From Manis javanica (lineage: Eukaryota > Chordata > Mammalia > Pholidota > Manidae): DNA of 64,000 nt. Where the stretch lies: assembly GCF_040802235.1 (NCBI RefSeq), contig NC_133163.1, positions 40,630,501 through 40,694,500 of the forward strand. The letters are read 5' to 3'. Numbering within the stretch: the first letter of the stretch is position 1; each line of letters opens with the position of its first letter. Made by a program: the position numbers and the translations under genes. Below are positions 10,790-60,009 of this stretch, one piece after another. A model generated the notes under the pieces. It searched no databases and was not told where the DNA came from. It saw nothing but the letters and a program-made list of their open reading frames with translations.

Positions 10790-12260
10790 GTCCGGCTTTG
10801 TCTGGCCCAGCACGGGTTCCCCAAGGAGATCGATCTGCACTCTCTGAAGCCCAGGGCCTCTGCGGCGTAACTTCGCGGAGAGATGATGTCCTGGGCGGGC
10901 TTTGCGGAGGCTACCTGGCTGCCGCCCCGCCCCGCGCTGCTGCGTACACACGCGGTTCCCTCGGCAACGCCTGGAACGCACGTCAGAGGATCCGCCAGGT
11001 CACTGGCGACCGCCAGACACAGGCTCACAGCTCGACTCCCGGCAGAGGCCGCTCGCACCGGCCCGGAACCACCTCCGGCTGCGGCCGCGGCCGCCCGTGC
11101 GGGATGAGGAGACCCGTAGGCGCCGCGGGGCCCCATGGAGCAGCCATCGGTCCGCCCGCCCGTGAGCACGGCCTTGTTGGTCAGCCCACACCCCGAAGCC
11201 CCCTCCGCGGCCGGCGCGCCTGGCGGGACGTCCTCCGCGACAACATCAGCGGCCGTGGTCTCCATCAGCACCGTGGTGGCCGCGGCTCTGGGGAACCGGA
11301 GCTTCGGGAGCGGAGGCGACGGCACTGGCGCCTGGGCTGGCGGCGGGCCGCGGGCGGCGGGGGCGGTGGGGAGGCCGCCGCTCGGGCCGGAGGCGGCGCC
11401 GCTGCTGTCGCACGGGGCGGCGGTGGCGGCGCAGGCGCTCGTCCTCCTGCTTATCTTCCTGCTGTCTAGCCTGGGCAACTGCGCGGTGCTGGGGGCGATC
11501 GTGAAGCACCGGCAGCTCCGTACCGTCACCAACGCCTTCATCCTGTCTCTGTCCCTGTCGGATCTGCTCACCGCGCTGCTCTGCCTGCCCGCCGCCTTCC
11601 TGGACCTCTTCACGCCGCCCGGGGGCTCTGCGGCCGCCGCCGCTACGGCGCCCTGGCGCGGCTTCTGCGCTGCCAGCCGCTTCTTCAGCTCGTGCTTCGG
11701 CATCGTGTCCACGCTCAGCGTGGCGCTCATCTCGCTGGACCGCTACTGCGCCATCGTGCGGCCGCCGCGGGAGAAGATCGGTCGCCGCCGTGCGCTGCAG
11801 CTGCTGGCGGGCGCCTGGGTGGCGGCGCTGGGCTTCTCCACGCCCTGGGAGTTGCTCCGGGCGCCCCGGCAGCCCCCGGCCGCACAGAGCTTCCACGGCT
11901 GCTTGTATCGGACGTCCCCGGACCCCGCGCAGCTGGGCGCGGCCTACAGCGTGGGGCTGGTGGTGGCCTGCTACCTGCTGCCCTTCCTGCTCATGTGCTT
12001 CTGGCACTACCACATCTGCAAGGCCGTGCGCCTGTCCGACGTGCGCGTGCGGCCTCTGACCACCTATGCGCGCGTGCTGCGCTTATTCAGTGAGGTGCGC
12101 ACAGCCACCACCGTGCTCGTTATGATCGTCTTCGTCATCTGCTGCTGGGGGCCCTACTGCTTCCTGGTGCTGCTGGCCTCGGCCCGGCAGGCCCAGGCCA
12201 CACAGGCCCCCTCGCTCCTCAACGTGCTGGCAGTCTGGCTCACCTGGGCCAATGGGGCCA
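10790..12260. promoter_or_regulatory. CpG island covering the GPR135 promoter region and most of its coding exon
   Basis: The sequence changes abruptly from AT-rich repeats to GC-rich DNA dense in CpG, with a GC box (gggcggg, about 10896) and no obvious TATA box. The island spans the presumed 5' UTR and the coding part up to TM6-TM7. This fits a CpG-island promoter for GPR135; the start site itself cannot be read from sequence. Long open frames on both strands here are side effects of base composition. Confidence 0.8.
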
Positions 12261-12601
12261 TCAATCCTGTTATCTATGCCATTCGCAACCGCAACATTTC
12301 GATGATCCTGGGGCGCAACCGGGAAGAGGGCTACCGGACTAGGAATGTGGACACTTTCCTGCCCAACCAGGGCTTGGGTCTGCAGGCCAGATACTACAGT
12401 CGCCTTCGAAACCGCTATACCAACCGGTTGGGGGCCTGCAGCTGGATGTCCTCTTCCAACCCGGCCAGTGGGGTGGGAGGGGACGTGGCCATGTGGGCCC
12501 GAAAAAATCCAGTTTTGCTTTTCTGCCGGGAGGGGCCACCAGAGCCTGTAAGGGCAGCGGCCAAACAGCCTAAATCTGAACCAGGGGATACCAGCCTCTA
12601 A
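11135..12601 (+). CDS. GPR135: GPR135, orphan class A G-protein-coupled receptor, intronless
   Basis: One uninterrupted frame of 488 codons. A long Ala/Gly/Pro-rich N-terminus (about 1-96, possible N-glycosylation at Asn54) precedes seven hydrophobic segments at roughly 97-122, 132-157, 176-205, 219-241, 268-294, 321-348 and 359-384. Class A landmarks are present: GN at 114-115 in TM1, LSLSD with Asp143 in TM2, Cys178 at the start of TM3 and Cys256 in loop 2 for the conserved disulfide, DRY at 202-204, CWGP at 337-340 and NPVIY at 377-381. The basic, Ser-rich C-tail is about 100 residues. GPR135 is a plasma-membrane orphan reported to recruit beta-arrestin without ligand; no ligand can be inferred here. 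The ATG sits in ccccATGG, a good Kozak context. The gene looks intact. Confidence 0.97.
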
Positions 12602-29560: not shown

Positions 29561-29823
29561 TGAAGAGTCCTCTGAAGGACTACTACTAGTAAGATGGCAA
29601 ACTTCCGGCTTCTCTTCGGGGGGTCCTTGGTTTCCGCTGGCGCCACCTGAAGCCCAATCACCTCTCGCTCCCCTCCCAATCCCAGCACCTAGCCAACAGC
29701 CACCAGCTCCGTAGAAGTGACACCTCAATCAATTCATGCCCCTTCCTATATAACCTAGCACTTTTCCCTAATAAAGCGGAACTCTCCGGTTAATTGCTGC
29801 TATGTGTCGCTCCTTTCCTTTCA
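29561..29823 (+). repeat. Solo LTR of the tRNA-Phe-primed ERV family
   Basis: The sequence runs from tgaagagtcc to cctttcctttca and matches, in opposite orientation, the 249-bp LTRs of the provirus at 53164-60009. Shared segments are aagatggcaaacttccggct, gcgccacctgaagcccaat, cccagcacctagccaacagc, cctatataac, cctaataaag and gtgtcgctcc. It carries a short insertion after the first 10 bp. No clear TSD is visible. It lies within decayed sequence that may belong to an older ERV. Confidence 0.85.
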
Positions 29824-33916: not shown

Positions 33917-34611
33917 AGGAGAAACATTTTTTTTTTTTTGAGAGGGCATCTCTCATATTTATTGATCAAATGGTTGTTAACAACAATAAAATTCTGTATA
34001 GGGGACTCAATGCACAATCATTAATCAACCCCAAGCCTAGTTCTCAACAGTCTCCAATCTTCTGAAGCATAACGAACAAGTTCTTACATGGTGAACAAAT
34101 TCTTACATAGTGAATAAGTTCTTACATGGTGAACAGTACAAGAGCATTCATCACAGAAACTTTCGGTTTTGATCACGCATTATGAACTATAAACAATCAG
34201 GTCAAATATGAATATTCATTTGATTTTTATACTTGATTTATATTTGAATCCCACATTTCTCCCTTATTATTATTGTTATTATTATTATTATTATTTTTAA
34301 TAAAATGCTGAAGTGGTAGGTAGATGCAAGATAAAGGTAGAAAACATAGTTTAGTGCTGTAAGAGGGCAAATGTAGATGATCAGGTGTGTGCCTATAGAC
34401 TAAGTATTAATCCAAGCTAGACAAGGGCAACAAAACATCCACGGATGCAGAAGATTTCTCTCAAAACGGGGGGGGGGGGTGGTTCTAAGCCTCCCCTCTG
34501 TTGATCCCCAATTTCTCACCTGATGGCCCCCACTGCGACTGTGCCTGTCTTAGGTTGTTCCTCCCTTGAGGAATCTTACCCGTCTCTGGCAAACAGGAGA
34601 AACATTTTTTT
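33917..34611 (-). mobile_element. 5'-truncated, L1-mobilised copy of the retroviral tail of the L1-env chimera
   Basis: The body (33934-34594) is on the minus strand, with its poly(A) as a T-run on the left, AATAAA as the complement of 33958-33963, and a 17-bp TSD (aggagaaacattttttt) at 33917-33933 and 34595-34611. Along its length it matches, with few differences, 50166-50803 at the end of the large chimera. It contains no L1 coding sequence and no env; it is the last 0.65 kb only. A 5'-truncated copy with A-tail and long TSD is the signature of L1 target-primed reverse transcription. Confidence 0.9.
34262..34302. repeat. (TTA)n tract inside the mobilised tail
   Basis: About ten TTA-type triplets with interruptions. 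The matching place in the chimera (50452-50475) has the complementary AAT run of different length. Confidence 0.9.
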
Positions 34612-42400: not shown

Positions 42401-43662
42401 TCACAAATAAACAACAGATGCAATACTAGTGTTGGCAACATAATGGGGGGAAAATCCCTACATTGTAGTCCCTGTGTTTTCCCTAGAAATCATGGTGTTC
42501 GATATAATAACTAAGCAGTTAATTATGCACAAAGGAAGAGAAGGTATCTTACCAAAAGGCTGACTTTTTACATTATATACGTGGTTTAGGTGGTTTGTAC
42601 ACCCAAATAACATGGCTGCTTTCTTAGATAACCAGTGGACATGGTTGCTGACCAGGTGATTTGTCTTCTGTAAGTCAGTTCTTATATTGGTTGGAGAATT
42701 ACGCCATCATGTTGGAGTAAAATGGACTCTCTTCTACATCCACAGGAGTAACATTAACCTATACTTTCCCCTGTGTTCATCACTTATGAAATCTGGAGTG
42801 TCCTTGTTCAACACTGAAAAGTAGTCAAAATGATATGATCCGGGGGGTGGAGCCAAGATGGTGGGTGAGTAGAGCAGCGAAAATCTCCTCCCAAAACCAC
42901 ATATATTTATGAAAATATAACAAAGACAACTCTTCCTAGAAGAGAGACCAGAAGACACAAGAAAACATCCAGACCACATCCACACCTGCGAGAACCCAGC
43001 GCCTCATGAAGGGGGTAAGATACAAGCCCCGGCCCAGCGGGACCTGAGTGCCCCACACCTCATCTCCAGGCAGGAGGAGAGGAGTCAGAGCGGGGAGGGA
43101 GAGGGAGCCCAGGACTGCTAAACACCCAGCCCTAGCCATCCGCACTGGAGTGCAGACACAGTGCATGCGTGGGGTGCTGGATACTAAGGAAACAGGACAG
43201 GTAAGACCTGTGAGCAGGTCCCTGAGGCCGGCGCCCTGGGGACAAAGAAAAGCGAGTGCTTTTTGGAAGTCTTAAAGGGACAGTGGTCCCACAGCCGGAC
43301 AGAAGCATCCTGGGACACTTAGTCTAGCAGCAGGGAATCTGGGGAACTCTGGGCACTCTAATCCCCTGGGCAGCAGGGAGCATGGAGTCCCCTAATGGAG
43401 ATAAATAGCCTCCCGGCTGCTCCCCCTCCAACGCAGCTCCACCATATCGGAGCAGCAGCCTGAGGCAGGCCACACCCAGGGTGACAGCGGAGATAAACTC
43501 CATAGCAGCCGGGCAGGAATCAGAAGCCCTGTCTGTGTGCAGCTGCCCAGCACAAGCCACTAGAGGTCACTGTTCTCCCAGGAGAGGAAGACCACAAACC
43601 AACAAGAAGGAAAGTTCTTCCAGCTGTCACTCATGCCAGCTCTGCAAACTATCTCTATCACC

Positions 43663-44538
43663 ATGAAAAGGCAAAATTTCAGGTAGACCAAGATAACAGA
43701 GTCAACACCTGAGAAGGAGACAGACCTAACCAGTCTTCCTGAAAAAGAATTCAAAATAATAATCATAAACATGCTGACGGAGATGCAGAGAAATATACAA
43801 GAGCAATGGGATGAAGTCCAGAGGGAGATTACAGATGCCCAGAGGGAGATTACAGACATCCAGATAGAGATTACAGAAGTGAAATGAACTCTGAAAGGAT
43901 TTATAAGCAGAATAGATAAGATGCAAGAGGCCATTGATGGAATAGAAACCAGACAACAGGAACACAGAGAAGCTGACACAGAGAGAGATAAAAGGATCTC
44001 CAGGAATGAAACAATATTAAAAGAACTGTGTGACCAATCCAAAAGGAAAAATATCCATATTATAGGAGTACCAGAAGAAGAAGAGAGAGAAAAAGGGATA
44101 GAAAGTGTCTGAAGAAATAATTGCTGAAAACTTCCCCAAACTGGGGGAGGAAATAATCGAACAGACCATGGAAATACACAGAACTCCCAACAGAAAGGAC
44201 CCAAGGAGGACAACACCAAGACACATAATAATTAAAATGGCAAAGATCAAGGACAAAGAAAGAGTTTTAAAGACAGCTAGAGAGAAAAAGGTCACCTATA
44301 AAGGAAAACCCACCAGGCTATCATCAGACTTCTCAATAGAAACTTACAGGCCAGAAGAGAATGGCATGATATATTTAATGCAATGAAACTGAAGGGCCTT
44401 GAACCAAGGATACTGTATTCAGCACAATTATCATTTAAATATGAAGGAGGGATTAAACAATTCACAGACAAGCAAAAGTTGAGGGAATTTGCCTCCCACA
44501 AACCACCTCTACAGAGTATTTTAGAGGGACTGTTCTAG
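43663..44538 (+). pseudogene. L1 ORF1 (RNA-binding chaperone), disrupted
   Basis: Starts at ATG 43663 and has in-frame stops at 43684-43686, 43885-43887 and 44110-44112; similarity then moves to another frame. A coiled-coil-rich first half (with heptad-like repeats at about 43819-43878) precedes the RRM-like segment (NIHIIGVPEEE), the C-terminal domain (PRHIIIKMAKIKDKERVLK) and the usual C-terminal end near 44538. Intact ORF1 protein would coat L1 RNA as trimers. This copy cannot make it. Confidence 0.85.
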
Positions 44539-44851
44539 ACGGGAGCACTCCTAAGACTAAACAGATGTCACCAGAGAAAATAAAATCACAGCAAAGAAAG
44601 CAGACCAACCAAATACTAACTAAAGGCAAAAAATAAAATCAACTACCCACTAAAAGCAGTTAAAAGAAACACAAAAGAGCACAGAATAAAACAACCAACA
44701 TATAAAGAATGGAGGAGGAGGAATAAGAAGGGAGAGAAGAAAAGAATCTCCAGACAGTGTATATAATAGCTCAATAAGTGAGCTAAGTTAGGCAGTAAGA
44801 TACTAAGAGGCTAACCTTGAACCTTTGGTAACCAAGAATCTAAAGCCTGCA

Positions 44852-47800
44852 ATGGCAATAAGTACATATATTTCAATAGTCACCCTAAATGTAAATGGAC
44901 TTAATGCACCAATCAAAAGACACAGAGTAATAGAATGGATAAAAAAGCAAGACCCATCTATATGCTGCTTACAAGAAACTCACCTCAAACCCAAAGACAT
45001 GCACAGGACTAAAAGTCAAGGGATGGAAAAACATATTTCGGGCAAACAACAGAGAGAAGAAAGCAGGAGTTGCAGTACTAATATCAGACAAAATAGATGT
45101 CAAAACAAAGAAAGTAACAAGAGATAAAGAAGGATATTACATAATGATAAAGGGCTCAGTCCAAAAAGAGGATATAAACATTCTAAATATATATGCACCC
45201 AACACAGGAGCACCAGCATATGTGAAACAAATACCAACAGAACTAAAGGGAGAAATGGACTGCAATGCATTCATTTTAGACTTCAACACACCATTCACCC
45301 CAAAAGATAGATCCACCAGACAGAAAATAAGTAAGGACACAGAGGCACTGAACAACACACTAGAACAGATGGACCTAATAGACATCTATAGAACTCTACA
45401 TCCAAAAGCAATAGGATATACATTCTTCTCAAGCGTACATGGAGCATTCTCCAGAATAGACCACATACTAGCTCAGAAAAAGAGCCTCAGTAAATTCCAA
45501 AAGACTGAAATTCTACCAACCAACTTTTCAGACCACAAAGGTATAAAACTAGAAATAAATAGTACAAAGAAAGCAAAAAGGCTCACAAACACATGGAGGC
45601 TTAACAACATGCTCCTAAATAATCAATGGATCAATGAACAAATTAAAATAGAGATCAAGGAATATATGGAAACAAATGACAACAACAACACAAAACCCCA
45701 ACTTCTGTGGGACGCAGTGAAAGCAGTCTTAAGAGGAAAGTATATAGCGATCCAGGCACACTTGAAGAAGGAAGAACAATCCCAAATGAATAGTCTAACA
45801 TCACAATTATCGAAACTGGAAAAACAAGAACAAATGAGGCCTAAAGTCAGCAGAAGGAGGGACATAATAAAGATAAGAGAAGAAATCTACAAAATTGAGA
45901 AGAATAAAACAATAGAAAAAAATCAATGAAACCAAGAGCTGGTTCTTTGAGAAAATAAACAAAATAGTTAAGCCTCTAGCCAGACTTATTAAGAGAAAAA
46001 GAGAATCAACACACATCAACAGAATTAGAAATGAGAATGGAAAAATCAAAACAGACTCCACAGAAATACAAAGAATTATTAGAGACTACTATGAAAACCT
46101 ATATGCTAACAAGCTGGAAAACCTAGAAGAAATGGACAACTTCCTAGAAAAATACAACCTTCCAAGACTGACCAAGGAAGAAACACAAAAGTTAAACAAA
46201 CCAATTACAAGCAAAGAAATTGAAACAGTAATCAAAAAACTACCCAAGAACAAAACCCCGGGGCCGGACGGATTTACCTCGGAATTTTATCAGACACACA
46301 GAGAAGACATAATACCCATTCTCCTTAAAGTGTTCCACAAAATAGAAGAAGAGGGAATAATCCCAAACTCATTCTATGAAGCCAACATCACCCTAATACC
46401 AAAACCAGGCAAAGACCCCACCAAAAAATAAAATTACAGACCAATATCCCTGATGAATGTAGATGCAAAAATACTCAATAAAATATTAGCAAACCGAGTT
46501 CAAAAATATATCAAAAGGATCATACACCATGACCAAGTGGGATTCATCCCAGGGATGCAAGGATGGTACAACATTCGAAAATCTATCAACATCATCCACC
46601 ACATAAACAAAAAGAAGGAAAAAAACCACATGATCATCTCCATAGATGCTGAAAAAGCATTCGACAAAATTCAACATCCATTCATGATAAAAACTCTCAG
46701 CAAAATGGGTATAGAGGGCAAGTACCTCTATACATAATAAAGGCCATATATGATAAACCCACAGCCAACATCATACTGAAGAGCGAGAAGCTGAAAGCCT
46801 TTCCTCTGAGATCGGGAACAAGACAGGGATGCCCACTCTCCCCACTCTTATTCAACATAGTACTGGAGGTCCTAGCCACAGCAATCAGACAAAACAAAGA
46901 AATACAAGGAATCCAGATTGGTAAAGAAGAAGTCAAACTGTCACTATTTGCAGATGACATGATATTGTACATTAAAAACCCTAAAGACTCCACTCCAAAA
47001 CTACTAGAACTGATATTGGAGTACAGCAAAGTTGCAGGATACAAAATTACCACACAGAAATATGTGGCTTTCCTATACACTAACAATGAACCAATAGAAA
47101 GAGAAATCAGGAAAACAACTCCATTCACAATTGCATCAAAAAGAATAAAATATCTAGGAATAAACCTAACCAAAGAAGTGAGAGACCTATACCCTGAAAA
47201 CTACAAGTCACTCTTAAGAGAAATTAAAGGGGACACTAACAAATGGAAACTCATCCCATGCTCTTGGCTAGGAAGAATTAATATCGTCAAAATGGCCATC
47301 CTGCCCAAAGCAATATACAGATTTGATGCAATCCCTATCAAACTACCAGCTACATTCTTCAACGAGCTGGAACAAATAGTTCAAAAATTCATATGGAAAC
47401 ACCAAAGACCCTGAATAGCCAAAGAAGAATAAGGTGGGGGGGGGGATCTCACTCCCCAACTTCAAGCTCTACTACAAAGACATACTAATCAAGACAATTT
47501 GGTACTTTCACAAAAACAGAGCCACAGACCAGTGGAACAGATTAGAGACTCCAGACATTAACCCAAACATATATGGTCAATTAATATTTGATAAAGGAGC
47601 CATGGACATCCAATGGGGAAATGATAGTCTCTTCAACAGATGGTGCTGGCAAAACTGGACAGCTACATATAGGAGAATGAAACTGGACCATTGTCTAACC
47701 CCACACACAAAAGTAAATTTGAAATGGATCAAAGACTTGAATGTAAGTCATGAAACCATAAAACTCTTAGAAAAAAACATAGGCATAAATCTCTTAGACA

Positions 47801-48206
47801 TAAACATGAGTGACCTCTTCCTGAACATATCTCCCCGGCAAGGAAAACAATTGCAAAAATGAACAATTGGGACTATATTAAGCTGAAAAGCCTCTGTACA
47901 GCAAAAGACACCATCAATAGAACAAAAAGGAACCCTACAGTATGGGAGAATATATTTGTAAATGACAGATCCGATAAAGGCTTAACATCCAAAACATATA
48001 AAGAGCTCACCCACCTCAACAAACAAAAAACAAATAATCCAATTAAAAAATGGGCAGAGGAACTGAACAGACAGTTCTCCAAAAAAGAAATTCAGATGGC
48101 TAACAGACACATGAAAAGATGCTCCACATCGCTAGTTATCAGAGAAATGCAAATTAAAACCACAATGAGGTATCACCTCACACCAGTAAGGATGGCTACC
48201 ATCTAA
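44852..48206 (+). pseudogene. L1 ORF2 (endonuclease and reverse transcriptase), disrupted
   Basis: The frame begins MAISTYISIVTLNVNGLNAP, the endonuclease start, with CCLQETH and later FSDHKGI. The reverse transcriptase part shows [47 protein letters not shown], a [10 protein letters not shown] block and the catalytic FADD at 46947-46958. At least four frameshifts and several stops (for example near 45130, 45930, 46430 and 46735) break it. Similarity to the ORF2 C-terminus goes on in broken form to about 48660, so 48206 is only the last open segment's end. Confidence 0.88.
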
Positions 48207-48659
48207 ATGTCAAACAACAACAAATGTTGGTGAGGTTGTGGAGAAAGGGGAACCCTCCTACACTCCTGGTGGGAATATAAATTAGTTCAACCATTGTAGA
48301 AAGCAGTATGGAGGTTCCTCAAAATGCTCAAAATAGACTTACCATTTGACCCAGGAATTCCACTCCTAGGAATTTACCCTAAGAATGCCGCACTCAAGTT
48401 TGAAAAAGACAGATGCACCTCTATGTTTATCGCAGCACTATTTACAATAGCCAGGAATTGGAAGCAACCTAACTGTCCATCAGTAGATGAATGAATAAAG
48501 AAGATGTGGTACATATACACAATGGTATATTATTCAGCCATAAGAAGAAAACAAATCCTACCATTTGCAACAACATGGATGGAGCTAGAGGGTATTATGC
48601 TCAGTGAAATAAGCCAAGCAGCGAAAGAGAAATACCAAATGATTTCACTCATCTGTGGA

Positions 48660-49015
48660 GTATAAGAACAAAGGAAAAACTGAAGGAACAAAACAGCAGC
48701 AGAATCACAGAACCCAAGAATGGACTAATAGGTACCAAAGGGAAAGGGACTGGGGAGGATGGGTGGGTAGGGAGGGATAGGGGAGGGGGAGAAAGGGGGT
48801 ATTATGATTAGCATGCATAATGGGGGGGTGGGAGAAAGGGGAGGGCTGTACAACACAGAGAAGACAAGTAGAGATTCTACAACATTTTGCTATGCTGATG
48901 GACAGTGACTGTAATGGGGTTTGTGAGGGAGACCTGGTATAGGGGAGAGCCTCATAAACATAATATTCTTCATGTAATTGTAGATTAATGATAACAAAAA
49001 AAAAGAGAAAGAAAA
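48660..49015 (+). other. L1 3' UTR and A-rich L1 terminus
   Basis: A G-rich stretch (48745-48845) and ctgatggacagtgactgtaa are shared with the truncated L1 at 40917-41707. The segment closes with cataatattcttcatgtaat, gattaatgataac and the A-rich 48993-49015, where an ordinary L1 copy would end. Confidence 0.8.
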
Positions 49016-49360
49016 GGGGGATTACTCCCTGATAGGATAAAACTAACTGCAAATCAATGATTAATGCATGCTTTACATATCTTTAATTTTGATCATTTAA
49101 AGGTGTCAGATGATCAGCTATGGAAGTACATTTTTCTGATAATATTCCTTTCTCTTAAAAAAAATCAGTTCCTGTGTGGTGATCTCCAATAAGTTCTTCA
49201 CAATGGTAGAAAGGTCATATTAAAGTGTGGGCAAAGGGTTTGTTTGTGTTTATACAGAGGATCAAAGCCTAATTTGGCTACCCAGAAAATGAATTAATAT
49301 ACAATATGAAGAAGAACTTCCAACCTCAACATCCTCTGAAAGAGTCATTCCAGAAGATGA

Positions 49361-49924
49361 TCATTAAAAAACTTCAACAAAGATCCTGGCGCTGTTGCAA
49401 TTGTAGCTGCATTCATCCCACCGGTTCCTGGACTTGCCATTGGAATGAAGAAGGAGATATCTAGGCGGGCCTGTGCATACAGTAAAACAACAAATTTGAC
49501 TGGATCTATACTGTTGGAACTCAACCAAGAATTAGGAGAAGTGCAAGTTGCAGTGCTCCAAAATCTTGTGACTATAGACTATCTACTGTTAAAAGAACAT
49601 ATGGGATGTGGACAGTTCCCAGGAATGTGTTGTTTTAATTTGTCTGATTTTTCTCAAACTATTCAAATTCAGTTAGACAATATCCATCATATCATTGATA
49701 AGTTTTCACAAATGCCTAGGGTGCCTAACTGGTTTTCTTGGTTTCACTGGATATGGCTGGTAATTGTAGGTCTGCTTTGGTTATGTAGCTGTATTCCTAG
49801 TATGTTAATGTGTGCATGCAATTTAATTAGTAGTTTAAAACCTATACATGCATATGTTACTCTACAAGAAGATATGTCAAATAATCAATCTTCCCATGTT
49901 TTCTTCCATCTGCTACTTCTATAG
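49361..49924 (+). pseudogene. Captured retroviral env transmembrane (TM) subunit frame
   Basis: The frame is open for 187 codons (first ATG 49445, 159 codons; stop 49922-49924). It begins with a hydrophobic Ala/Pro/Gly-rich stretch like an internal fusion peptide (AVAIVAAFIPPVPGLAIG), then a Cys, a heptad region, the immunosuppressive-type LQNLVTIDYLLLK, a CX6CC motif (Cys55, 62, 63 of the ATG-started frame) followed by FNLSD, a Trp-rich membrane-proximal segment and a membrane anchor (about 100-124), then a short tail. The GMCCFNLSD neighbourhood resembles alpharetrovirus and filovirus-type TM more than the gamma-type env at 53713. The surface subunit is absent, so it cannot be a working envelope. 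No stop interrupts it, unlike the L1 ORFs. Confidence 0.85.
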
Positions 49925-50811
49925 CTTTTCTTCTTCCTTCCTAATTACAACCCTTTAGTACAATTCATGCCTCATATTGAAATTACCAAGTATAATAATT
50001 CTTCCAAGTGGTAAAGATACCTCAAGACAAATGCTGGGCATAGAAGCCACAGGGCATAAATCTGCAAAGAAGTAAGAAGCTAACCTTTCCAAATAATATT
50101 GCTTCTCTCTCACTTACCAACTTTACATTTCCCGTATGGCCCCGGAAGATGACTGGTTAGCTAGAGATGGGTAAGATTCCTCAAGGGAGGAACAACCTAA
50201 GACAGGCACAGTCGCAGGGGGGCCATCAGGTGAGAAATTGGGGATCAACAGAGGGGAGGCTTAGAACCTCATCCCCCCTGTTTTGAGAGAAATCTTCTGT
50301 ATCTGTGGATGTTTTGTTGCCCTTGTCTAGCTTGGATTAATACTTAGTCTATAGGCACACACCCGATCATCTACATTTGCCCTCTTACAGCACTATATCA
50401 TGTTTTCTACCTTTATCTTGCATCTACCTACCACTTCAGCATTTTATTAAAAATAATAATAATAATAATAATAGAGAAATGTGGGATTCACATATAAATC
50501 AAGTATAAAAATCAAACGAATAATCATATTGGACCTGATTGTTTATAGTTCATGATCCGTGATCAAAACCGAAAGTTTCTGTGATATGACTGCCCTTGCA
50601 CTGTTCACCATGTAAGAACTTATTCACTATCCAAGAACTTGTTCACCTTGTAAGAACTTGTTCGTTATGCTTCAGAAGATTGGAGACTGTTGAGAACTAG
50701 GCTTGGGGTTGATTAATGATTGTGCATTGAGTCCCCTATACAGAATTTTATTGTTGTTAACAACCATTTGATCAATAAATATGGGAGATGCCCTCCCCCC
50801 CACAAAAAAAC
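49925..50811 (+). other. Post-env and U3-R-like retroviral tail with poly(A) signal
   Basis: After the env stop comes pyrimidine-rich and then LTR-like sequence: TATA-like agtataaaaatc (50505-50516), the R-like agactgttgagaactagg, AATAAA at 50774-50779 and a short A-tail. An AAT-triplet microsatellite lies at 50452-50475. The part from 50166 on is repeated as the mobile copy at 33934-34594. The element ends at a poly(A) site and not at an LTR CA terminus. Confidence 0.75.
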
Positions 50812-50825
50812 AAATGATATGATCC

Positions 50826-52887: not shown

Positions 52888-53163
52888 TGTGTTAGTCCAC
52901 TATGGCTGCTGTGATGATGTACTACAGACAGGGTGGGTGGCTTAAACAACAAAGAAGTTTATTTTCTCAAGACTCTGGAGGCTGGAAGCCTGAGATCCAG
53001 GCGTTGGCAGGGCCGGTCTCATTCTGAAGCCTCTCTTCTGGGCTTTCTCTAGGCAGCCGCCTTCTCGCCCCGCCTTCACGTGGTCTTTCTGATGTGAGCG
53101 TGTGTGTCCTATCTCCTCTTCTTATAAGGACACAAATCATAGTGGATTAGGGCCCACCCTCGT
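52888..53163 (-). repeat. MLT1-like MaLR LTR, antisense, first part (split by a provirus)
   Basis: Reads gttagtccactatggctgct, gtggcttaaacaacaaagaa, ctctggaggctggaagcctg, cttataaggacacaaatcat, ggattagggcccaccct, the reversed MLT1 order. It breaks off at the provirus and resumes at 60010. Confidence 0.75.
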
Positions 53164-53412
53164 TGAAAGGAAAGGAGCGACACACAGCAGCAATTCACCG
53201 GAGAGTTCCACTTTATTAGGGAAAGGTGCTGGGTTATATAGGAAGGGGCATAGGGTGATTGTGGTGTTACTTCTACGGGGCTGGTGGCTGTTGGCTAGGT
53301 GCTGGGATTGGGAGGGGGGTAAGAGGTGATTGGGCTTCAGGTGGCGCCAGTGGGAACCGAGGACCCCGAAGAGAAGCCGGAAGTTTGCCATCTTACTGGT
53401 GGGGACCCTTCA
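53164..53412 (-). repeat. 3' LTR of the provirus
   Basis: On the minus strand it starts tgaagggtcc and ends cctttcctttca. It has a TATA box TATATAA (complement of 53234-53240) and AATAAA (complement of 53212-53217), giving a very short R. It is the same length as the 5' LTR. Confidence 0.93.
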
Positions 53413-53429
53413 TTCCCCCCTTTCTCCTC
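53413..53429 (-). promoter_or_regulatory. Polypurine tract of the provirus
   Basis: The minus strand reads gaggagaaaggggggaa directly before the 3' LTR, the usual primer for plus-strand DNA synthesis. Confidence 0.85.
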
Positions 53430-53712
53430 TATGGGTTTGTGGACATTGCTTTCTCTCTGACTGCTTCCTGCTGAACGGGGGCGGAGAAGGGAGTGAGGGT
53501 TTGAGGATTGGGAGGAAAGGGTTGATAGGATTCCCCACAGTAAGGATGAGTAGATGTGGACTTCTTCAGGTTGGAAATCAATGAAGGTTCCCTGTAACCA
53601 TAGGTCGAGGACCTGTTGATTCCAATGGTGCCAAGAGGATATGGGTGTCAGGAGCCAGGCGTCTGCAGCCATTGTTTCCAGGAACAGTTTCCAGTGGAGA
53701 GATGGGTCCATC

Positions 53713-55401
53713 TCAGTGTGTGGTGAGGAGGTCATGTGAGGGTGAGGGATCTTCTGTGGCCAGAAGCTGGTAGTTCCTGAGTAAAAGCTGGTTGAAAGCT
53801 TGATTAGAGATTTTTCTGACTTGGGATTTGATGAACTTTTTTATACAGGGTAAGAAGAGACAGGCGAGAAGAATGATTATTATGGGGCCTGCAATGGGCC
53901 AGAGCCAGGTGGGGAGGGGGTTTGTTAGTATTGAAGAGAATGGGTTGGAATTGGAAGCAGAGTGGAGGCTGGAGGCAAGGTCGGTGAGTTTGGTGATGTC
54001 AGTTTCTACAATGCCGGATTCGTTGATGTAATAGCAACACTCTTCCCAGAGGAAGATGCAGGTGCTGCCCTTCTCGGCTGTAAGCAGATCTAGGGCCCGC
54101 CGGTTTTGAAGGGTGACGTTAGCTAGCGAAGTGACCTGTCTTTGGAGAGAGCCTAGGGAATCGGCAGTGGATATCAGGGCTCCCTCAAGTTTGGCGTTGA
54201 GATCTCTAACTGCCCATAGAGAGTGACTCAAGGCTTCTCCCGAAAACCCTGCCCCAATGGCTGAGGTGATCAAAGAGCTACTGACCATGATGGGAAGGAA
54301 AGCAGCTCTTTTTGTGCACGAGGGCAAGGGAGGTTGGAGCTCAAGAAATTCTGCCATGCTGTAAAGTGTAAACTGTGGGATTAGGGTGATGAGAATGCAG
54401 GGTGTATCGGAGTTGAGAGGCAGTGAGTTAAAAAGACTGCCATTACACCAAAAGAAGTGTCCTGGTTGTGTAAAAGTCTTAGAGCCAGAGGTAGGGGTGT
54501 AGATAGAGAGGCAGTGAAGTGTGCTGGAGGGGGGTGGAGTTGGGCCTACACAGTGGTGGATGGTGAGATTATCTGCGTATTCTGGTTCCCATAGGGGTAT
54601 GTCTGCCAGGGGGCGGAGGGGTTGTCCTTCTGCATGGAAAGAGTAGTTGGAAATATTGAGGGGCACAGCGGCCAGCAGTGGGTGCTGTAGTGATGCGCAC
54701 AAGAAACAATTGGCGGTGTTGAGGGTGTGGTTGAGAAAGATGGTGGTGTCTTGAATGAGCTGTAACCAAGAGTAGGAGGAATAAGAAGATGAAGAGGTGC
54801 CATCAAGAGTTTGGATAATGACTTTCTCGGAATGTCTGATATCTGATGCAACTTGAGAGATCTGGGAGTGAGCGGGAACATACTCTCGAGAGATATGAAG
54901 GGTACCGTGGGGGGTCGAGGACCCCCCCCCGTAGTAAACTGAGGCTGTTACTCCAGCAGCCCATCGAGAGTCCCAGGGATCTGGGATTGATAAGGAGAAT
55001 GAGCCGTTGGGATATTTCATGAAACGGTTGGAGGAGTAATACTGTGGGTACTGGAAGTCACCCATGTAGTGAATGGCGCAAGACCAGTAGGGACATCCCC
55101 CGTAGGTGTCTTGCCATTGCTTGCAATAGGCTTGTCTTTGGTCATAGAGGAAGCAGAGGTAGGGAGAATAAAGGTAGCTGCTAGTGAACACTTCGGTGGA
55201 GGGAGGAAAGTGGAGGTATAAAGGCTCAGAGCAGCTTTTCAGAGGGCAGTCTGGTGTGGCAATGAGGGCAGTAACTTTTGTTTGATGCTGTGTGTAAGTC
55301 TGTCTGACTTTGAATCGCTATACAAAGGAGGCTGGGGTGGCGGGGAAGACAATAAGAATGAGGAAAAAAAGCGAGAGAGCAGTAAAGGAGGAAAAAGTCA
55401 T
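53713..55401 (-). pseudogene. env of the tRNA-Phe-type provirus, one early in-frame stop
   Basis: An ATG at 55399-55401 starts a hydrophobic signal-peptide-like segment; a TAG at 55318-55320 interrupts soon after it. Downstream the frame is open to 53713 (over 530 codons). Numbering from 55191: a CFLC motif (162-165, the CXXC place in the surface subunit), many N-glycosylation sites, a Lys-Arg cleavage region (SCTKR, 291-295) lacking the usual first basic residue, a fusion-peptide-like stretch, LQNRRALDLL (361-370), a CX6CC (Cys378, 385, 386), a membrane anchor (429-450) and a cytoplasmic tail of about 40 residues. This is gamma-type architecture. As it stands, full-length translation from the ATG is blocked. 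Confidence 0.9.
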
Positions 55402-55439
55402 GATTCGGGTATGGATGGCAAAGGGGGTGAATGGGATTT

Positions 55440-57175
55440 TGGAGGAAAGAGGACAGTAAGGTCAGGAGTCTGGAGGGAGGGAGAGTCTGTAAACTTTTGT
55501 AGGTTAAGAGATCTTTTAGGTGATGTGGGGACAGAATGGTAAGGGGCGCTCCGAATGTTAGTTTATGAGCTTCTTTCTGCAAGAGCTGTCCAGTGGCTAA
55601 TGCCCGTAGGCAGGGGGCCCATCACTGAACTGTGGGGTCTAATTGCTTGGAGAGATAAGCTACTGGGGCAAAGAATGGACCATAATATTGGCCTAGGACT
55701 CCTAGAGCTTGACTGGACCTCTCATGAATGTATAATGAGAAGGGTTTTGACAAATCAGGGAGATGGAGAGCTGGAGCTTCCACAAGGGCTTGACAGAGCT
55801 TAATGAAGGAGTGTCGGGGTGAGGATGATAATGGTTCTTCAGGGGGGCCCTTGCTGAGGTCGTATAGGGGTTTTGCCAACAGGGAGAAGTTAGGGATCCA
55901 CGCTCTACAATACCCAACTAGGCCTAGAAAGGAAAGGATTTCTGTCTTGGTTTTGGGAACGGGCAGGTCAGAGAGGAGTCATTTTCTGTCTAAGGTAATG
56001 GACTTTCTTTGTTGAGACAGAGGGAATCCAAGGTAAGTGACAGAAGGGGAAGAGATTTGAGCTTTGACGGGGGATACCCGGTAACCTCTGGAAGCTAGAA
56101 GGTTAAGTAGAGACGCAGTGTCAAGTTGAGACTGTTCCCACGAGGGACTGCAGAGTAGAAGATCATCTACATATTGTAATAAAGTGGACTCGGGGTGATC
56201 ATGACGAAACTGTTTGAGGTCTTGAGCTAGGACTTGTCCAAAAATATGGGGACTATCTCGGAAGCATTGTGGCAAAACTGTCCAAGTAAGTTGTTCAGAA
56301 TGTCTGGTGTATGGGTCCGTCCAGGTGAAGGCGAAAAAATCTTGGGAGGAGGAGTCTAGAGGGATAGAAAAAAATGCGTCCTTGAGATCTAGGACTGAGA
56401 AGTGGGATGCTGAGGCAGGGATCTGCGATAAAAGGGTATGTGGATTTGGAACTAAGGGATGGATAGGGACAACGGCCATCTTGATGAGGCGAAGGTCTTG
56501 GACAAGGCGGAAAGATCTGTTGGTTTTTTTAACAGCTAATATGGGGGTATTAAATGGGGAGTGAGTGGGTCTGAGGTAGTTTTTGTTTAAGAGATCTTGA
56601 ATGATGGGTTGGAGGCCTATGAGGGCTGAAGTGGTTAGGGGGTATTGGGCCTGACAGATATACTGAGAGGGGTCATGTAATTTGATAGAGGCAGGGGGAC
56701 ATAGAGCCATGGAGGGGCTTGTAATGTCCCAAACTTTGGGATTTACAGGGTGTATGAGGGTGGAACCAGAGCTTTCATTGGGTAGAAGGGGGTTGTCGGC
56801 TATGAGGGCCATCAGAAAGGGAGTACTGGGGGCTGTGGGAGTGGATATAGTTATGGAAACATGGAGGAGGGAAAGGATGTCCCGTCCTAGTAAAGGGATG
56901 GGACACTGGGGCATAACTAGGAAGGAGTAGGAGAAAGGTATGGGATTGTCTAAGATTGTGCATAAAAGGGGGGGGGTTTTAATGGGAAAATCTGTTTACC
57001 TCCTACCCCGACTATAGGAGTAGGCTGGCGTGGTAGGGCCCCGGTATTCTCGCAAGACTGAGAAGGTGGCTCCTGTATCTAGGAGGAAGGAGATAGGGCG
57101 ACCGTCTACTGTTAAAGTAACCCTGGGCTCCTGTTTGGTGATGGAAATGGTCAGGTGAGAAGACCCCGGGCCCTG
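55440..57175 (-). pseudogene. pro-pol remnant: protease and reverse transcriptase; RNase H and integrase deleted
   Basis: The protease active site FLLDTGATFS is followed by an in-frame TAA at 56996-56998; sequence resumes in another frame (CPIPLLGRD). The RT frame (56914-55979) holds LVQDLRLI, FSVLDLKDAFFSIPL, FAFTW, LPQCFRDSP and the catalytic YVDD (about 56163-56174), then ends at a stop; the connection part goes on past it (LSFLGLVGYCRAWIPNFS) and shifts frame again. At TFGAPLTILSPHHLKDLL and a little beyond, in the RT-RNase H connection, similarity stops near 55445 and the env leader begins. About 2 kb (rest of connection, RNase H, integrase) is therefore missing. Confidence 0.88.
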
Positions 57176-59098
57176 TCAATCTTCTTCTGCCAGCCCCACT
57201 ACGGCGGGCTTAGGATGAGGGTTGTTCATCCAGCCTCCCCTTTGGGTGGTTGGGCAATCAGACCCCCAGTGGCCCTTTTTGTGGCATCTGGGGCATGGGG
57301 TGGTAGGAGATCTGGGGGAGGGGCACGCCCTTGACCAATGTCCCTCTTTTCCACACTTGAAACAAGCTCCTGGGGGGGGGCTTGTTTGTAGAGGGGCACC
57401 CAGGTTGTGGTTTTATCAGCTGGGCCAACATTTGGAAATTGGCCTGATCAGCCTTTTGTTTACGGCGTTCTTTCTCCTCCTCCCGGTTATGGAAGACTTT
57501 AAAGGCCACTGTTAGGATCTCAGTCTGTGGGGTAGCGGGGCCTTGTTCTAACTTTTTGAGTTTAGCTTTAATGTCGGGGTAGCTTTGAGCTAGGAAGTAT
57601 GTCATAAGGACATGTCTTCCTTCAGGTGTTTCTGGGTCCAGGCTGGTATACTGTAATAGGGCTTGAGTGAGTCTGTCTAAGAACTCGGAGGGGGTTTCGT
57701 CTCTCTTTTGAATTATGTCTTGGAGCTTTTGAAAATTGACTAGTTTACGAGCTGCCTTTTTCAGACCTGCTATTAAGCAGGAGGCAAAAATATCTCGAGA
57801 GTGGAGACCCACGGCGGTGTTATAATCCCAGTGTGGGTCTTGTTCGGGGACAGCAGTGGGGCCAGAGGGATAGGTGTGGTCAGTCCTGTGGGTCTCGGTA
57901 GAATGTGTTTGGGCGAAGTCCCAAACTCGTCTACGCTCTTCAGGGAGGAGAGTATTGGCCAGGAGTATGAAAATGTCATGATGCGTGAGGCTGTAAGACT
58001 GGAGGGTCCATTGAAACTCCCTGACGTATGTCGTGGGATCAGTGGAAAAGGAACTTAGGCGTTTCTCTAGTTGGGCTAAATCTCCTAAGGAGAAAGGGAC
58101 GTGAACGCGCATGATGCCTTCAGATCCTGCTACCTCCCAGAGGGGGGCTATAATTTTGGGAGGCCCTCAGGACTGGGTCTGAGGGGGACTGAAGGGTTCT
58201 GGCTCAGTCTGTGTGGGGGAGACAGGTGATGGGGGCAAAGCCGTGATAATTTTGGGAGGCCTTCGGGACTGAATCTGAGGGGGCAAAGACGGAGGAGGCT
58301 CCTGGAACTTAGAGGGGGGCTGAAAGGCTCAGGCTCGATCTGCGGGAGGGGGGAGGTGAGGGGGATGGAGGAGGAGTGGGGAGGTGGGGGAGGAGATGGG
58401 GGTGGAGGGAGGGGAGGAGGGTGAAGGGAGAGGACGGGAGGCTTCTGCGGGGTTGGAGGCAGCAGCAGCGGCGGCAGAGGAAGGGGGAGGGGCTATTGTA
58501 GGAGAAGAAGGGGAAGGGAGAGGAAGGGAGGCTTCCACCACAGAGCGGTGGCAGCGGTAGAGGAAGGGGGAGGGGCTCTTGTAGGAGGAGAAGGGGAAGG
58601 GAGAGGAGGGGAGGCTTCTGCTGTGGGGAAAGAGGCAGCTGCTGCAGCGGAGGCTGGAGGGGTTGTAGGAGGTGGAGGGGCCGAAGGGGGAAGTCTGTAT
58701 GGCGGAGGCTCCTCGGCTGGGTCAAAGGTAATTGAAGAGGGACTGGGAGTGTGGGGAGGGGAGGGAGACGGCTTGCAGGCTAGGAGAACTTGGGGCGGGG
58801 AGCAGGTGGTGCAGAGGCTGGGATTTTGAGCTAGGAGGCGAAAAGCTTCGATATAGGGAATCTCCTTCCATTTTTTCAGGCGCTGGCAGTAGTTAAAGAG
58901 ATCGGGAGTGATGTTAGGATCAAGAGTTCCCCCTGCAGGCCATTGGTTGTTATTGTCTAGGGGGTATGTCGGCCAATCTTGGGAGCAATATTTACGGTGA
59001 AGTTTTGGTTTTATCTCAGGCGTCAGGGAGAGGGTAGCCAGATGCTTAAGCAGGCATTCAAGAGGTGAACTTTCAAGGCGGGATGAGGAGGCTCCCAT
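57176..59098 (-). pseudogene. gag of the provirus, frameshifted
   Basis: Starts MGASSSRLES at 59098, with the glycine-2 context for N-myristoylation of matrix. A Pro-rich p12-like region (about 58725-58140) is expanded by DNA repeats and changes frame. The capsid (from about 58140) includes VPFSLGDLAQLE and the major homology region-like ETPSEFLDRLTQALLQY. A charged Arg/Glu-rich stretch leads to nucleocapsid, where a frame change at a run of nine G (57372-57380, + strand) precedes two CCHC zinc knuckles (CFKCGKEGHWSRAC, CPRCHKKGHWGSDC). It ends at a UGA (57176-57178) with pro-pol in the same frame downstream. Broken as a reading frame, but every domain is identifiable. Confidence 0.88.
58140..58720 (-). 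repeat. GA/CT-rich imperfect tandem repeats in gag p12-like region
   Basis: A unit of about 83-90 bp opening gggagagga-gggaggcttc starts at 58426, 58516 and 58599 (+ strand). A second repeat (ttttgggaggcc) recurs at 58154 and 58250. On the coding strand these are runs of Pro, Ser and Leu codons. Confidence 0.8.
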
Positions 59099-59741
59099 GG
59101 CTAAAGGACAGAGAAGGAGACAAACAGGGGAAGACGAACGGAGATCCTCGGACTGGAAGCAGAACGCAAGGAGACAAAGGGCGTTCCCGATGATCCTTGG
59201 TGGTCTGCGGAAACTCGTACACGAGTCGAAATTTCTTAGGAAGTGTGGGTCGTCACTCAGACTTCCCTAAGAAGGCAGTTTGCCGGAGTCACGAGGTACC
59301 TAGCCTAGGAGTTTTCGGCAGACAGAACAGATTTCGGCGGACGGAACAGAAGGAGGTTGGGGGGGGGGGAAGGGAGCGTTCTCATCTGCAAAGGAGTCAC
59401 CTCGTTTATGGCTGTTGGAGGGGGGTCTGAGGGTCTGCCACAGCCGTGAAGGCCTGAGGCGGGGATTTATGGCTGTTGGAGGAGGGGCCTGAGGGGCCGC
59501 CGCAGCCGTGAAGGCCTGAGGCAGGGAGAGTTCCCTCCTCATCCCGGAGCGTCAGGGCCTTGCCGGATGATCACGGTCAATGGCACTGCGATAGCTCGGG
59601 GAAGAGTGGCCCACTCCTGGGGGAAAACTTATCTAAAGGCCAGAGAGGAGTGGTGTGATGAGCCAGCGCTGGAAAAAGAGGACGAGGGCAAGCTGCTGCT
59701 GGTGTCGGGGGGAAGACGGGGCCCAGTTGGGGTGTCCTGTC

Positions 59742-59759
59742 TCCTGGGTTTCGGCACCA
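59742..59759 (-). promoter_or_regulatory. Primer-binding site, tRNA-Phe type
   Basis: On the minus strand the 18 bases tggtgccgaaacccagga begin two bases after the 5' LTR. They match the tRNA-Phe primer site of HERV-F-like elements from memory, with one difference. Confidence 0.85.
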
Positions 59760-59760
59760 A

Positions 59761-60009
59761 TGAAAGGAAAGGAGTGACACACAGCAGCAATTCACCGGAG
59801 AGTTCCGCTTTATTAGGGAAAGGTGCTGGGTTATATAGGAAGGGGCATAGGGTGATTGTGGTGTTACTTCTACGGGGCTGGTGGCTGTTGGCTAGGTGCT
59901 GGGATTGGGAAGGGGGTAAGAGGTGATTGGGCTTCAGGTGGCACCGGTGGGAACCGAGGACCCTGAAGAGAAGCCGGAAGTTTGCCATCTTACTGGTGGG
60001 GACCCTTCA
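59761..60009 (-). repeat. 5' LTR of the provirus
   Basis: TATA box as the complement of 59831-59837 and AATAAA as the complement of 59809-59814. It differs from the 3' LTR by six transitions in my reading. Confidence 0.93.

What the first reader, a model, noticed from the sequence alone, without database searches (positions are those of the whole stretch)
42828..50825. An L1 retrotransposon with a retroviral env-LTR segment as its 3' end
One 14-bp TSD pair encloses a complete L1 body and 1.8 kb of retroviral env TM, U3 and R sequence ending at a poly(A) signal. So the fusion existed in the RNA that was inserted; it is not a later neighbour insertion. The simplest model is that an L1 sat upstream of a retroviral 3' end, its weak poly(A) site was read through, and the RNA ended at the retroviral site (3' transduction). 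The tail then served as the L1 3' end in later rounds.
Basis: partly seen in the sequence, partly recalled or inferred. Interest (0 to 1): 0.88.

Follow-up and report, generated by a model that had tools for sequence, protein, structure and literature searches.

The report
Pangolin L1 with a retroviral tail
In what is most likely the Malayan pangolin genome, a self-copying DNA element (LINE-1) carries the last part of an ancient retrovirus as its own end, and more than a thousand copies of this fusion lie across the genome; it shows that such elements can pick up a new, working end piece from a virus.

Summary
One 14-bp target-site duplication (42828-42841 / 50812-50825) encloses a full-length, now broken L1 and 1.8 kb of retroviral sequence ending in poly(A). 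The fusion is not unique: an exact pattern across the junction matches 1,584 places in the window's own 2.56-Gb genome, this one included (reversed control 0). Of 40 scored DNA matches all cross it: this copy at 100%, 39 others at 94-96%. Independent copies have different duplications. In 7 full-length copies L1 body and tail diverged about equally, so they travelled as one unit.

Corrections: the tail's first 369 bp are the 3' end of pol (integrase), then about 0.92 kb of env SU is missing, then TM, U3 and R follow. It stops at R, where a related provirus continues into U5. R plus poly(A) occurs 19,153 times in one exact form. TM evolves neutrally (dN/dS 0.9-1.1); L1 ORF2 was under selection (0.43-0.51).

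Best model: an L1 lay in sense inside a provirus, its RNA read through to the retroviral poly(A) site (3' transduction), and the tail became the 3' end of a prolific L1 subfamily. The founder was not found; a template switch stays open.

The parts
42828..42841 (.). 5' copy of the 14-bp target-site duplication AAATGATATGATCC
   Evidence: (two places only)
42842..48995 (+). full-length L1 body (5' UTR, ORF1, ORF2, 3' UTR); ORF2 remnants in several frames about 44807-48203, broken
   Evidence: (EN piece 44943-45926: Exo_endo_phos 23.0 bits, just under the 24.5 cut-off)
48996..49011 (+). A-rich linker between L1 3' end and retroviral sequence; varies among copies, often as GAAA repeats
49012..49380 (+). 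3' end of retroviral pol (integrase C-terminal part), degenerate
   Evidence: 82.6% and 84.1% to two proviruses; IN_DBD_C E 0.018, 14.8 bits, below cut-off
49380..49381 (+). point where about 0.92 kb of env SU is missing relative to a provirus (deletion or splicing, unresolved); the query spanning it aligns without a break in 19 of 20 fetched copies
49381..49921 (+). env transmembrane subunit remnant (open frame 49361-49921), ASLV-type TM
49922..50479 (+). retroviral 3' non-coding stretch up to the purine tract before the LTR
50480..50797 (+). U3 and R of the 3' LTR, with AATAAA at 50774; stops at the R end
50798..50811 (+). decayed C/A-run, remnant of the poly(A) tail
50812..50825 (.). 3' copy of the 14-bp target-site duplication
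33940..34594 (-). second tail copy, 5'-truncated (equivalent of about 50156-50797), 28 substitutions in 638 aligned bases
34595..34611 (.). duplication AAAAAAATGTTTCTCCT at the 5' side of the second copy (extent within the A-run is ambiguous)
33917..33933 (.). duplication AAAAAAATGTTTCTCCT at the 3' side of the second copy (extent within the A-run is ambiguous)

Best explanation
This is one dead, full-length member of an L1 subfamily, most likely of the Malayan pangolin, whose 3' end is the 3' end of an endogenous retrovirus with an ASLV-type TM. Inferred origin: a full-length L1 inserted in sense at an A-rich site near the 3' end of pol in a provirus (or in one that had already lost SU). Its transcript read through the L1 end and was cleaved at the retroviral poly(A) signal in R. 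L1 proteins then copied this RNA in cis by target-primed reverse transcription (3' transduction). Shown: the fused junction is present at 1,584 or more places; sampled copies end at R plus poly(A), and several have their own target-site duplications. Inferred: the retroviral signal took over from the L1's own; the pol/TM piece was cargo.
For: Junction in own genome: 2,204 first-look candidates, 40 scored, all 40 cross it (this copy 100%, 39 others 94-96%); exact gapped pattern 783+801 places, control 0. 19 of 20 fetched copies match CAATAAATA...[C/T]TC plus at least 6 A, where a provirus continues into U5. Genome-wide R+poly(A) in one exact form: 19,153, control 0. 4 of 11 exact junctions in the first 10.8 Mb of C1 have an exact R+poly(A) match 1,776-1,798 bp downstream on the same strand. 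Distinct duplications: 5 of 20 flank pairs (two of them in the window) beat all 380 cross pairs, two more have perfect 11-12 bp repeats at the element's edges. 7 full-length copies: non-CpG divergence ORF2 0.059, tail parts 0.046-0.053; ORF2 dN/dS 0.43-0.51, TM 1.11. Proviral homologues of both tail parts, in the same order. No AATAAA from 48500 to 49015, one at 50774.
Against: The founder locus (L1 inside a provirus) was not found; the one pattern answered gave a chance hit. 13 of the 20 flank pairs tested show no clear duplication by the method. Distances of L1 end and tail among 15-17 copies correlate only weakly (Mantel r 0.32-0.35, 250-506 of 5,000 permutations as high). Silent divergence in ORF2 (dS 0.085-0.139) exceeds that in TM (0.050) in the 7 copies; masking CpG removes most of this, but copy L025 keeps a more diverged ORF2. 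Counts fall from 19,153 (R end) to 1,830 (SU-less point) and 1,584 (junction), so a class of tail-only insertions is possible. A variant hexamer CATAAA at 48953 might have served the L1 itself.
Confidence: 0.68

Rival explanations
1. The founder arose by template switching: reverse transcription began on the poly(A) end of a retroviral RNA, copied R, U3 and part of env/pol, then jumped to the poly(A) end of an L1 RNA. Later rounds copied the fused L1 as one unit, as in the best explanation.
For: It gives the same order: L1, A-rich linker, retroviral 3' end, poly(A). The SU gap could be a spliced or jumped stretch. Template-switch chimeras of L1 are mentioned in print (passages of PMC6500023; passages of PMC13174262).
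Against: The retroviral side begins at an A-run that is also present in the two proviruses, which is the look of an L1 target site; nothing here excludes a jump.
Confidence: 0.2
2. The tail is a separate short SINE-R-like retroposon (or processed retroviral pseudogenes) mobilised in trans by L1, and the L1 fusion is a side branch of it.
For: Exact R+poly(A) ends outnumber exact junctions about 12 to 1. The second copy in the window has tail only. HERV-W processed pseudogenes with U3-R ends are known (passages of PMC5016936).
Against: L1 insertions are commonly 5'-truncated in any case (recalled). The counts at the SU-less point (1,830) and at the L1 junction (1,584) are of similar size. A SINE-like unit should show a fixed 5' start, which was not tested for.
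Confidence: 0.11
3. Chance neighbourhood: an L1 and a separate retroviral fragment lie side by side and the 14-bp repeat is coincidence or a later event.
For: None beyond 6 of 20,000 random window pairs with 14 shared bases.
Against: The same junction, apart from a variable A-rich linker, occurs at 1,584 places.
Confidence: 0.01

Closest known systems
L1 3' transduction lineages (human and other mammals; recalled, and named in passages of PMC6500023)
   Same: L1, its A-rich end, downstream flank and a second poly(A) inside one pair of target-site duplications; flank carried on in later rounds
   Different: Here the transduced flank is 1.8 kb of a provirus with its own poly(A) signal and it is on 1,584 or more copies; the source locus is not known
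SVA, in particular its SINE-R part (derived from HERV-K; passages of PMC7353768)
   Same: A retrovirus-derived 3' end followed by poly(A), moved by L1 proteins (that SINE-R is env plus LTR up to the poly(A) site is recalled)
   Different: SVA is non-autonomous with hexamer, Alu-like and VNTR parts; here the 5' part is a whole L1 and no such VNTR is present (one search lists only three short arrays)
HERV-W processed pseudogenes (passages of PMC5016936)
   Same: U3-R 3' end without U5, made by L1 machinery
   Different: Those are colinear with proviral RNA and start with R-U5; here the 5' part is L1
ERV-Alpha-Mpen and kin, Chinese pangolin (PMC12584738: abstract, section list, sections 6 and 7 and passages seen)
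   Same: An alpha/beta-like retrovirus in pangolins; the RT thumb domain it lists was also found in provirus piece L040 here
   Different: Identity of that family with the tail's source was not tested; the parts seen report a nearly complete L1 in a gamma provirus (ERV-Gamma.b9) but no L1 family with a retroviral end

Membership tests
LINE-1 (L1) | insertion by target-primed reverse transcription: target-site duplication, poly(A), 5' truncation of some copies | tested here: met
   duplications clear in 7 of 20 flank pairs only
LINE-1 (L1) | ORF1 and ORF2 with endonuclease and reverse transcriptase | tested here: inconclusive
   broken in this copy; EN piece 23.0 bits against cut-off 24.5; RT and ORF1 of this copy not scanned; longest stop-free stretches in 6 other full-length copies 253-479 aa, over the whole fetched stretch and both strands
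3' transduction | downstream flank between L1 A-run and a second poly(A), inside one duplication | tested here: met
3' transduction | a source locus where the flank lies next to the L1 in the genome | tested here: inconclusive
   one gapped pattern, 1 hit, chance; low sensitivity
SVA / SINE-R | hexamer, Alu-like and VNTR 5' parts, non-autonomous | tested here: not met
   5' part is a full-length L1; no such VNTR
HERV-W-type processed pseudogene | colinear with proviral mRNA, R-U5 at the 5' end | tested here: not met
   5' part is L1; tail starts in pol
Alpharetrovirus-type TM | TM similar to ASLV TM | tested here: met
   E 7.6e-12 to 4jpr/5h9c; no Pfam hit
ERV-Alpha-Mpen | sequence identity with that published family | not testable with these tools
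   its sequences were not at hand; only parts of the paper's text were seen

The most novel reading that the evidence does not exclude
A mammalian L1 lineage exchanged its own 3' end for a retroviral 3' end (pol tail, TM, U3, R with poly(A) signal) and became one of the most prolific L1 lineages of its host, leaving over 19,000 retroviral R ends in poly(A); every insertion also plants a retroviral U3-R, a potential promoter, next to host sequence.
Probability: 0.52. Interest if true: 0.82.

Novelty: new variant of a known kind. Interest (0 to 1): 0.72.

Why it matters
It is a natural experiment on what an L1 needs at its 3' end: a foreign retroviral end with its own poly(A) signal served through 1,584 or more insertions that reach into the L1. 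Beside SVA's SINE-R it would be a second case of a retroviral 3' end carried by L1, but here on the autonomous element itself. It may also mislead annotation: L1 insertions ending in U3-R could be counted as LTRs (inference). In the rows listed by eight paper searches (titles and abstract starts only: 20 of 48, 15 of 431, 20 of 369, 20 of 45, 10 of 19, 15 of 390, 15 of 36 and 8 of 14 matching papers) and in the parts seen of six papers I met no description of such a family; Dfam and Repbase were not searchable.

Tried and rejected
Matches of the env protein P0014 pile up at residue 71 (11 of 132 matches, 19 of 132 at 67-72). I first took this for the L1 junction; of 8 such loci looked at, 7 share another upstream sequence and the eighth differs again, so it is a different retroviral variant. 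ORF2 divergence computed by best BLAST piece per locus (dS 0.22-0.32) was set aside because nested L1s and frame changes probably mix in; the aligned full-length copies replace it. Its TM figure (dN/dS 0.91, 20 rows) is kept. Searches of viral contigs for tail DNA and for TM protein, and of genome contigs for tail DNA, gave no confirmed relative. Pfam gave no family for TM. Founder pattern: one chance hit; a looser one did not complete. Truncation counts at 0.62 kb and 1.15 kb did not complete. Mantel tests were inconclusive. P0025, a protein joining a TM piece to an L1 ORF1 piece, is not this junction. A P0026 search of the genome did not complete.

Whether the SU gap is a deletion or a splice was not resolved: the 3' side begins at or after an AG in the provirus, the 5' side shows no clear matching GT donor in the two proviruses.

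Full report
What is there. The 14-mer AAATGATATGATCC lies at 42828-42841 and 50812-50825 and nowhere else in the window. Between the two lie a full-length L1 starting GGGGGGTGGAGCC at 42842 and ending at about 48995, an A-rich linker, and a retroviral tail that ends in a decayed A-run. ORF2 of this copy is open only in pieces that change frame, so it is dead. The target resembles an L1 endonuclease site (TC|AAAATG), read by eye.

Composition of the tail. The open frame 49361-49921 is a retroviral TM. The closest solved structures are the ASLV TM (E 7.6e-12, residues 40-106); Pfam has no hit. A protein search gave 25 relatives among 74 candidates; the only one with a source name is 'uncharacterized protein LOC108387303 [Manis javanica]' (P0014). 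P0014 matches the window's own genome over 302 of 302 residues at 100% as printed (C2:83590960) and 99.7% by BLAST, so the window most likely comes from the Malayan pangolin. I read two adjacent pieces of each of two proviral loci. Tail 49012-49380 matches the end of pol in both (82.6% and 84.1%; weak integrase match of the tail itself). Tail from 49381 on matches TM and what follows (82.7% over 49381-50395 at C2; 63.8% over 49382-50795 at C15). In the C2 provirus the two matches lie about 0.92 kb apart, so the tail lacks most of SU. A query across this point aligns unbroken in 19 of 20 fetched copies (L018 gave no hit), and an exact pattern for it has 896+934 = 1,830 matches (control 1). The tail ends at R: the C15 provirus reads ...ATGCCTTCTC then GGCACC (U5), whereas 19 of 20 copies read ...TC then an A-run by a strict expression (the twentieth, L014, also shows CTC and an A-run).

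It is a family. The 251-bp junction query gave 2,204 first-look candidates in the own genome; 40 were scored and all 40 cross the junction over nearly the full query, this copy at 100% and 39 others at 94-96%. The exact pattern TGTAGATTAATGATA N{12,42} GGGGATTACT has 783+801 = 1,584 matches, this copy included, reversed control 0. The L1-end half alone has 20,076 (control 4), so at least 7.9% of L1 3' ends with that exact motif carry the tail. In the 20 fetched copies, all of which hold the junction, the exact pattern keeps 13, so the true number is probably larger. Some matches are segmental duplicates, for example three with one linker 19.98 kb apart on C1. An independent trace came before the genome search answered: an antisense reading frame from another contig (P0026) matches the L1 end, the linker and 12 of 16 tail-side residues. 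Of the four other hits of those searches, three reach the L1 end and show no tail (P0027, P0028, P0030) and P0029 stops inside the L1; their hosts are not known.

Independent insertions. Of 20 fetched copies, 18 had both ends usable (L019 and L026 dropped); with the window's two copies that makes 20 flank pairs. Five beat all 380 mismatched pairs (window element, second window copy, L009, L015, L020; that of L009 lies 12 bases before the first aligned base, that of L020 has one mismatch). L012 and L027 have perfect repeats of 12 and 11 bp at the element's edges, but 3 and 11 of 380 cross pairs score as high. The other 13 show no clear duplication by this method; L017 has an imperfect one by eye. 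By eye, several copies have L1 sequence as 3' flank, that is, they sit in or beside other L1s.

One unit. In 7 full-length copies divergence is level from ORF1 to the end of R (about 0.04-0.08) and higher in the 5' UTR (0.11-0.13). With CpG columns masked, ORF2 is 0.059 and tail parts 0.046-0.053; L025 stands out with a more diverged ORF2. Pairwise medians in 17-21 rows are 0.069 for the L1 3' end and 0.056-0.067 for three tail parts. Correlation between L1-end and tail distances is weak. ORF2 dN/dS is 0.43-0.51, TM 1.11 in the 7 copies; TM is 0.91 in 20 rows, of which 8 have in-frame stops. So the L1 genes were selected while the TM was cargo. A rough age of about 10 million years follows from half of about 0.047 and a recalled rate near 2e-9 per year; this is inference. 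The fetched copies were chosen by similarity to this one, so older branches are under-sampled. In a tree of 24 TM fragments P0014, P0016, P0017, P0019 and P0023 group together (support 88/92) and the window copy lies among the others; what the other fragments' contigs hold was not seen.

Scale. R followed by poly(A) in one exact form: 9,628+9,525 = 19,153 places, control 0. R followed by U5 in one exact form: 30+15 = 45, control 0, among them four pairs 7.28-7.32 kb apart, as in proviruses. That U5 form was taken from one provirus whose LTR is only about 63% like the tail's and it contains a CpG, so 45 is no census of proper LTRs. In the first 10.8 Mb of C1, 4 of 11 exact junctions have an exact R+poly(A) match 1,776-1,798 bp downstream on the same strand. 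By my arithmetic the drop from 19,153 to 1,830 within 1.4 kb and then to only 1,584 at 1.8 kb is steeper at first than a single exponential; strong 5' truncation or an added class of tail-only insertions could do this, and the counts in between did not complete.

How it works, most likely. Shown: RNA that contained L1 and the retroviral end was a template more than once, with new target-site duplications. Inferred: the first such RNA came from an L1 lying in sense in the 3' part of pol; the site in the two proviruses is an A-run followed by GGGGATTAC or GGGTGATTAC, fitting an L1 target. There is no AATAAA from 48500 to the end of the L1, only a variant CATAAA at 48953; the tail has AATAAA at 50774. 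Template switching could give the same founder. The founder was not found.

Known or new. Papers seen: PMC13174262 (abstract, section list, passages) is about human L1 chimeras with other RNAs and 5' transductions; PMC7353768 (passages) describes SINE-R as derived from HERV-K; PMC5016936 (passages) describes HERV-W processed pseudogenes; PMC6500023 (passages) an engineered L1/MaLR chimera; PMC12584738 (abstract, section list, sections 6 and 7, passages) pangolin ERVs; PMC9604959 (abstract and section list) env genes of carnivores and artiodactyls. The parts seen do not describe this family. The kind (L1 3' transduction; retroviral 3' end carried by L1) is known; an autonomous L1 subfamily with a retroviral 3' end at this number is, as far as these searches show, a new variant.

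Noticed in passing
window 53140-60009, minus strand: A gamma-type provirus with LTR-like repeats at 53164-53412 and 59761-60009 (97.6% alike) and a 534-aa open env frame (53716-55317, TLV_coat, nearest solved structures syncytin-1 and -2); a third partial copy of the repeat lies at 29585-29823.
   Followed up: partly
L029, L030, L032-L036: A recurrent retroviral variant in which env homology starts at residue 71-72 of P0014 after a shared, splice-acceptor-like upstream stretch; 7 of 8 loci examined.
   Followed up: partly
G000 contig C1, about 2.46, 5.44, 5.90 and 168.2-168.3 Mb: L1-end and junction matches repeat at about 18-20 kb spacing, which points to segmental duplications.
   Followed up: no
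P0025: A predicted protein that joins a TM fragment (93% over 29 aa) to an L1 ORF1 fragment: another TM/L1 arrangement, perhaps a nested insertion.
   Followed up: no
L018: A tail copy whose 3' flank looks, by eye, like U3 sequence of another copy, that is, an insertion into its own family.
   Followed up: no
window 11120-12598: Open single-exon GPCR frame, 493 aa, 7tm_1; GPR135-like by recall only.
   Followed up: no
L038 2147-2601 (C15 provirus, about 120 bases past the R end of the 3' LTR): L1 sequence (88% to window 46836-47293) lies just downstream of this provirus's R end.
   Followed up: no
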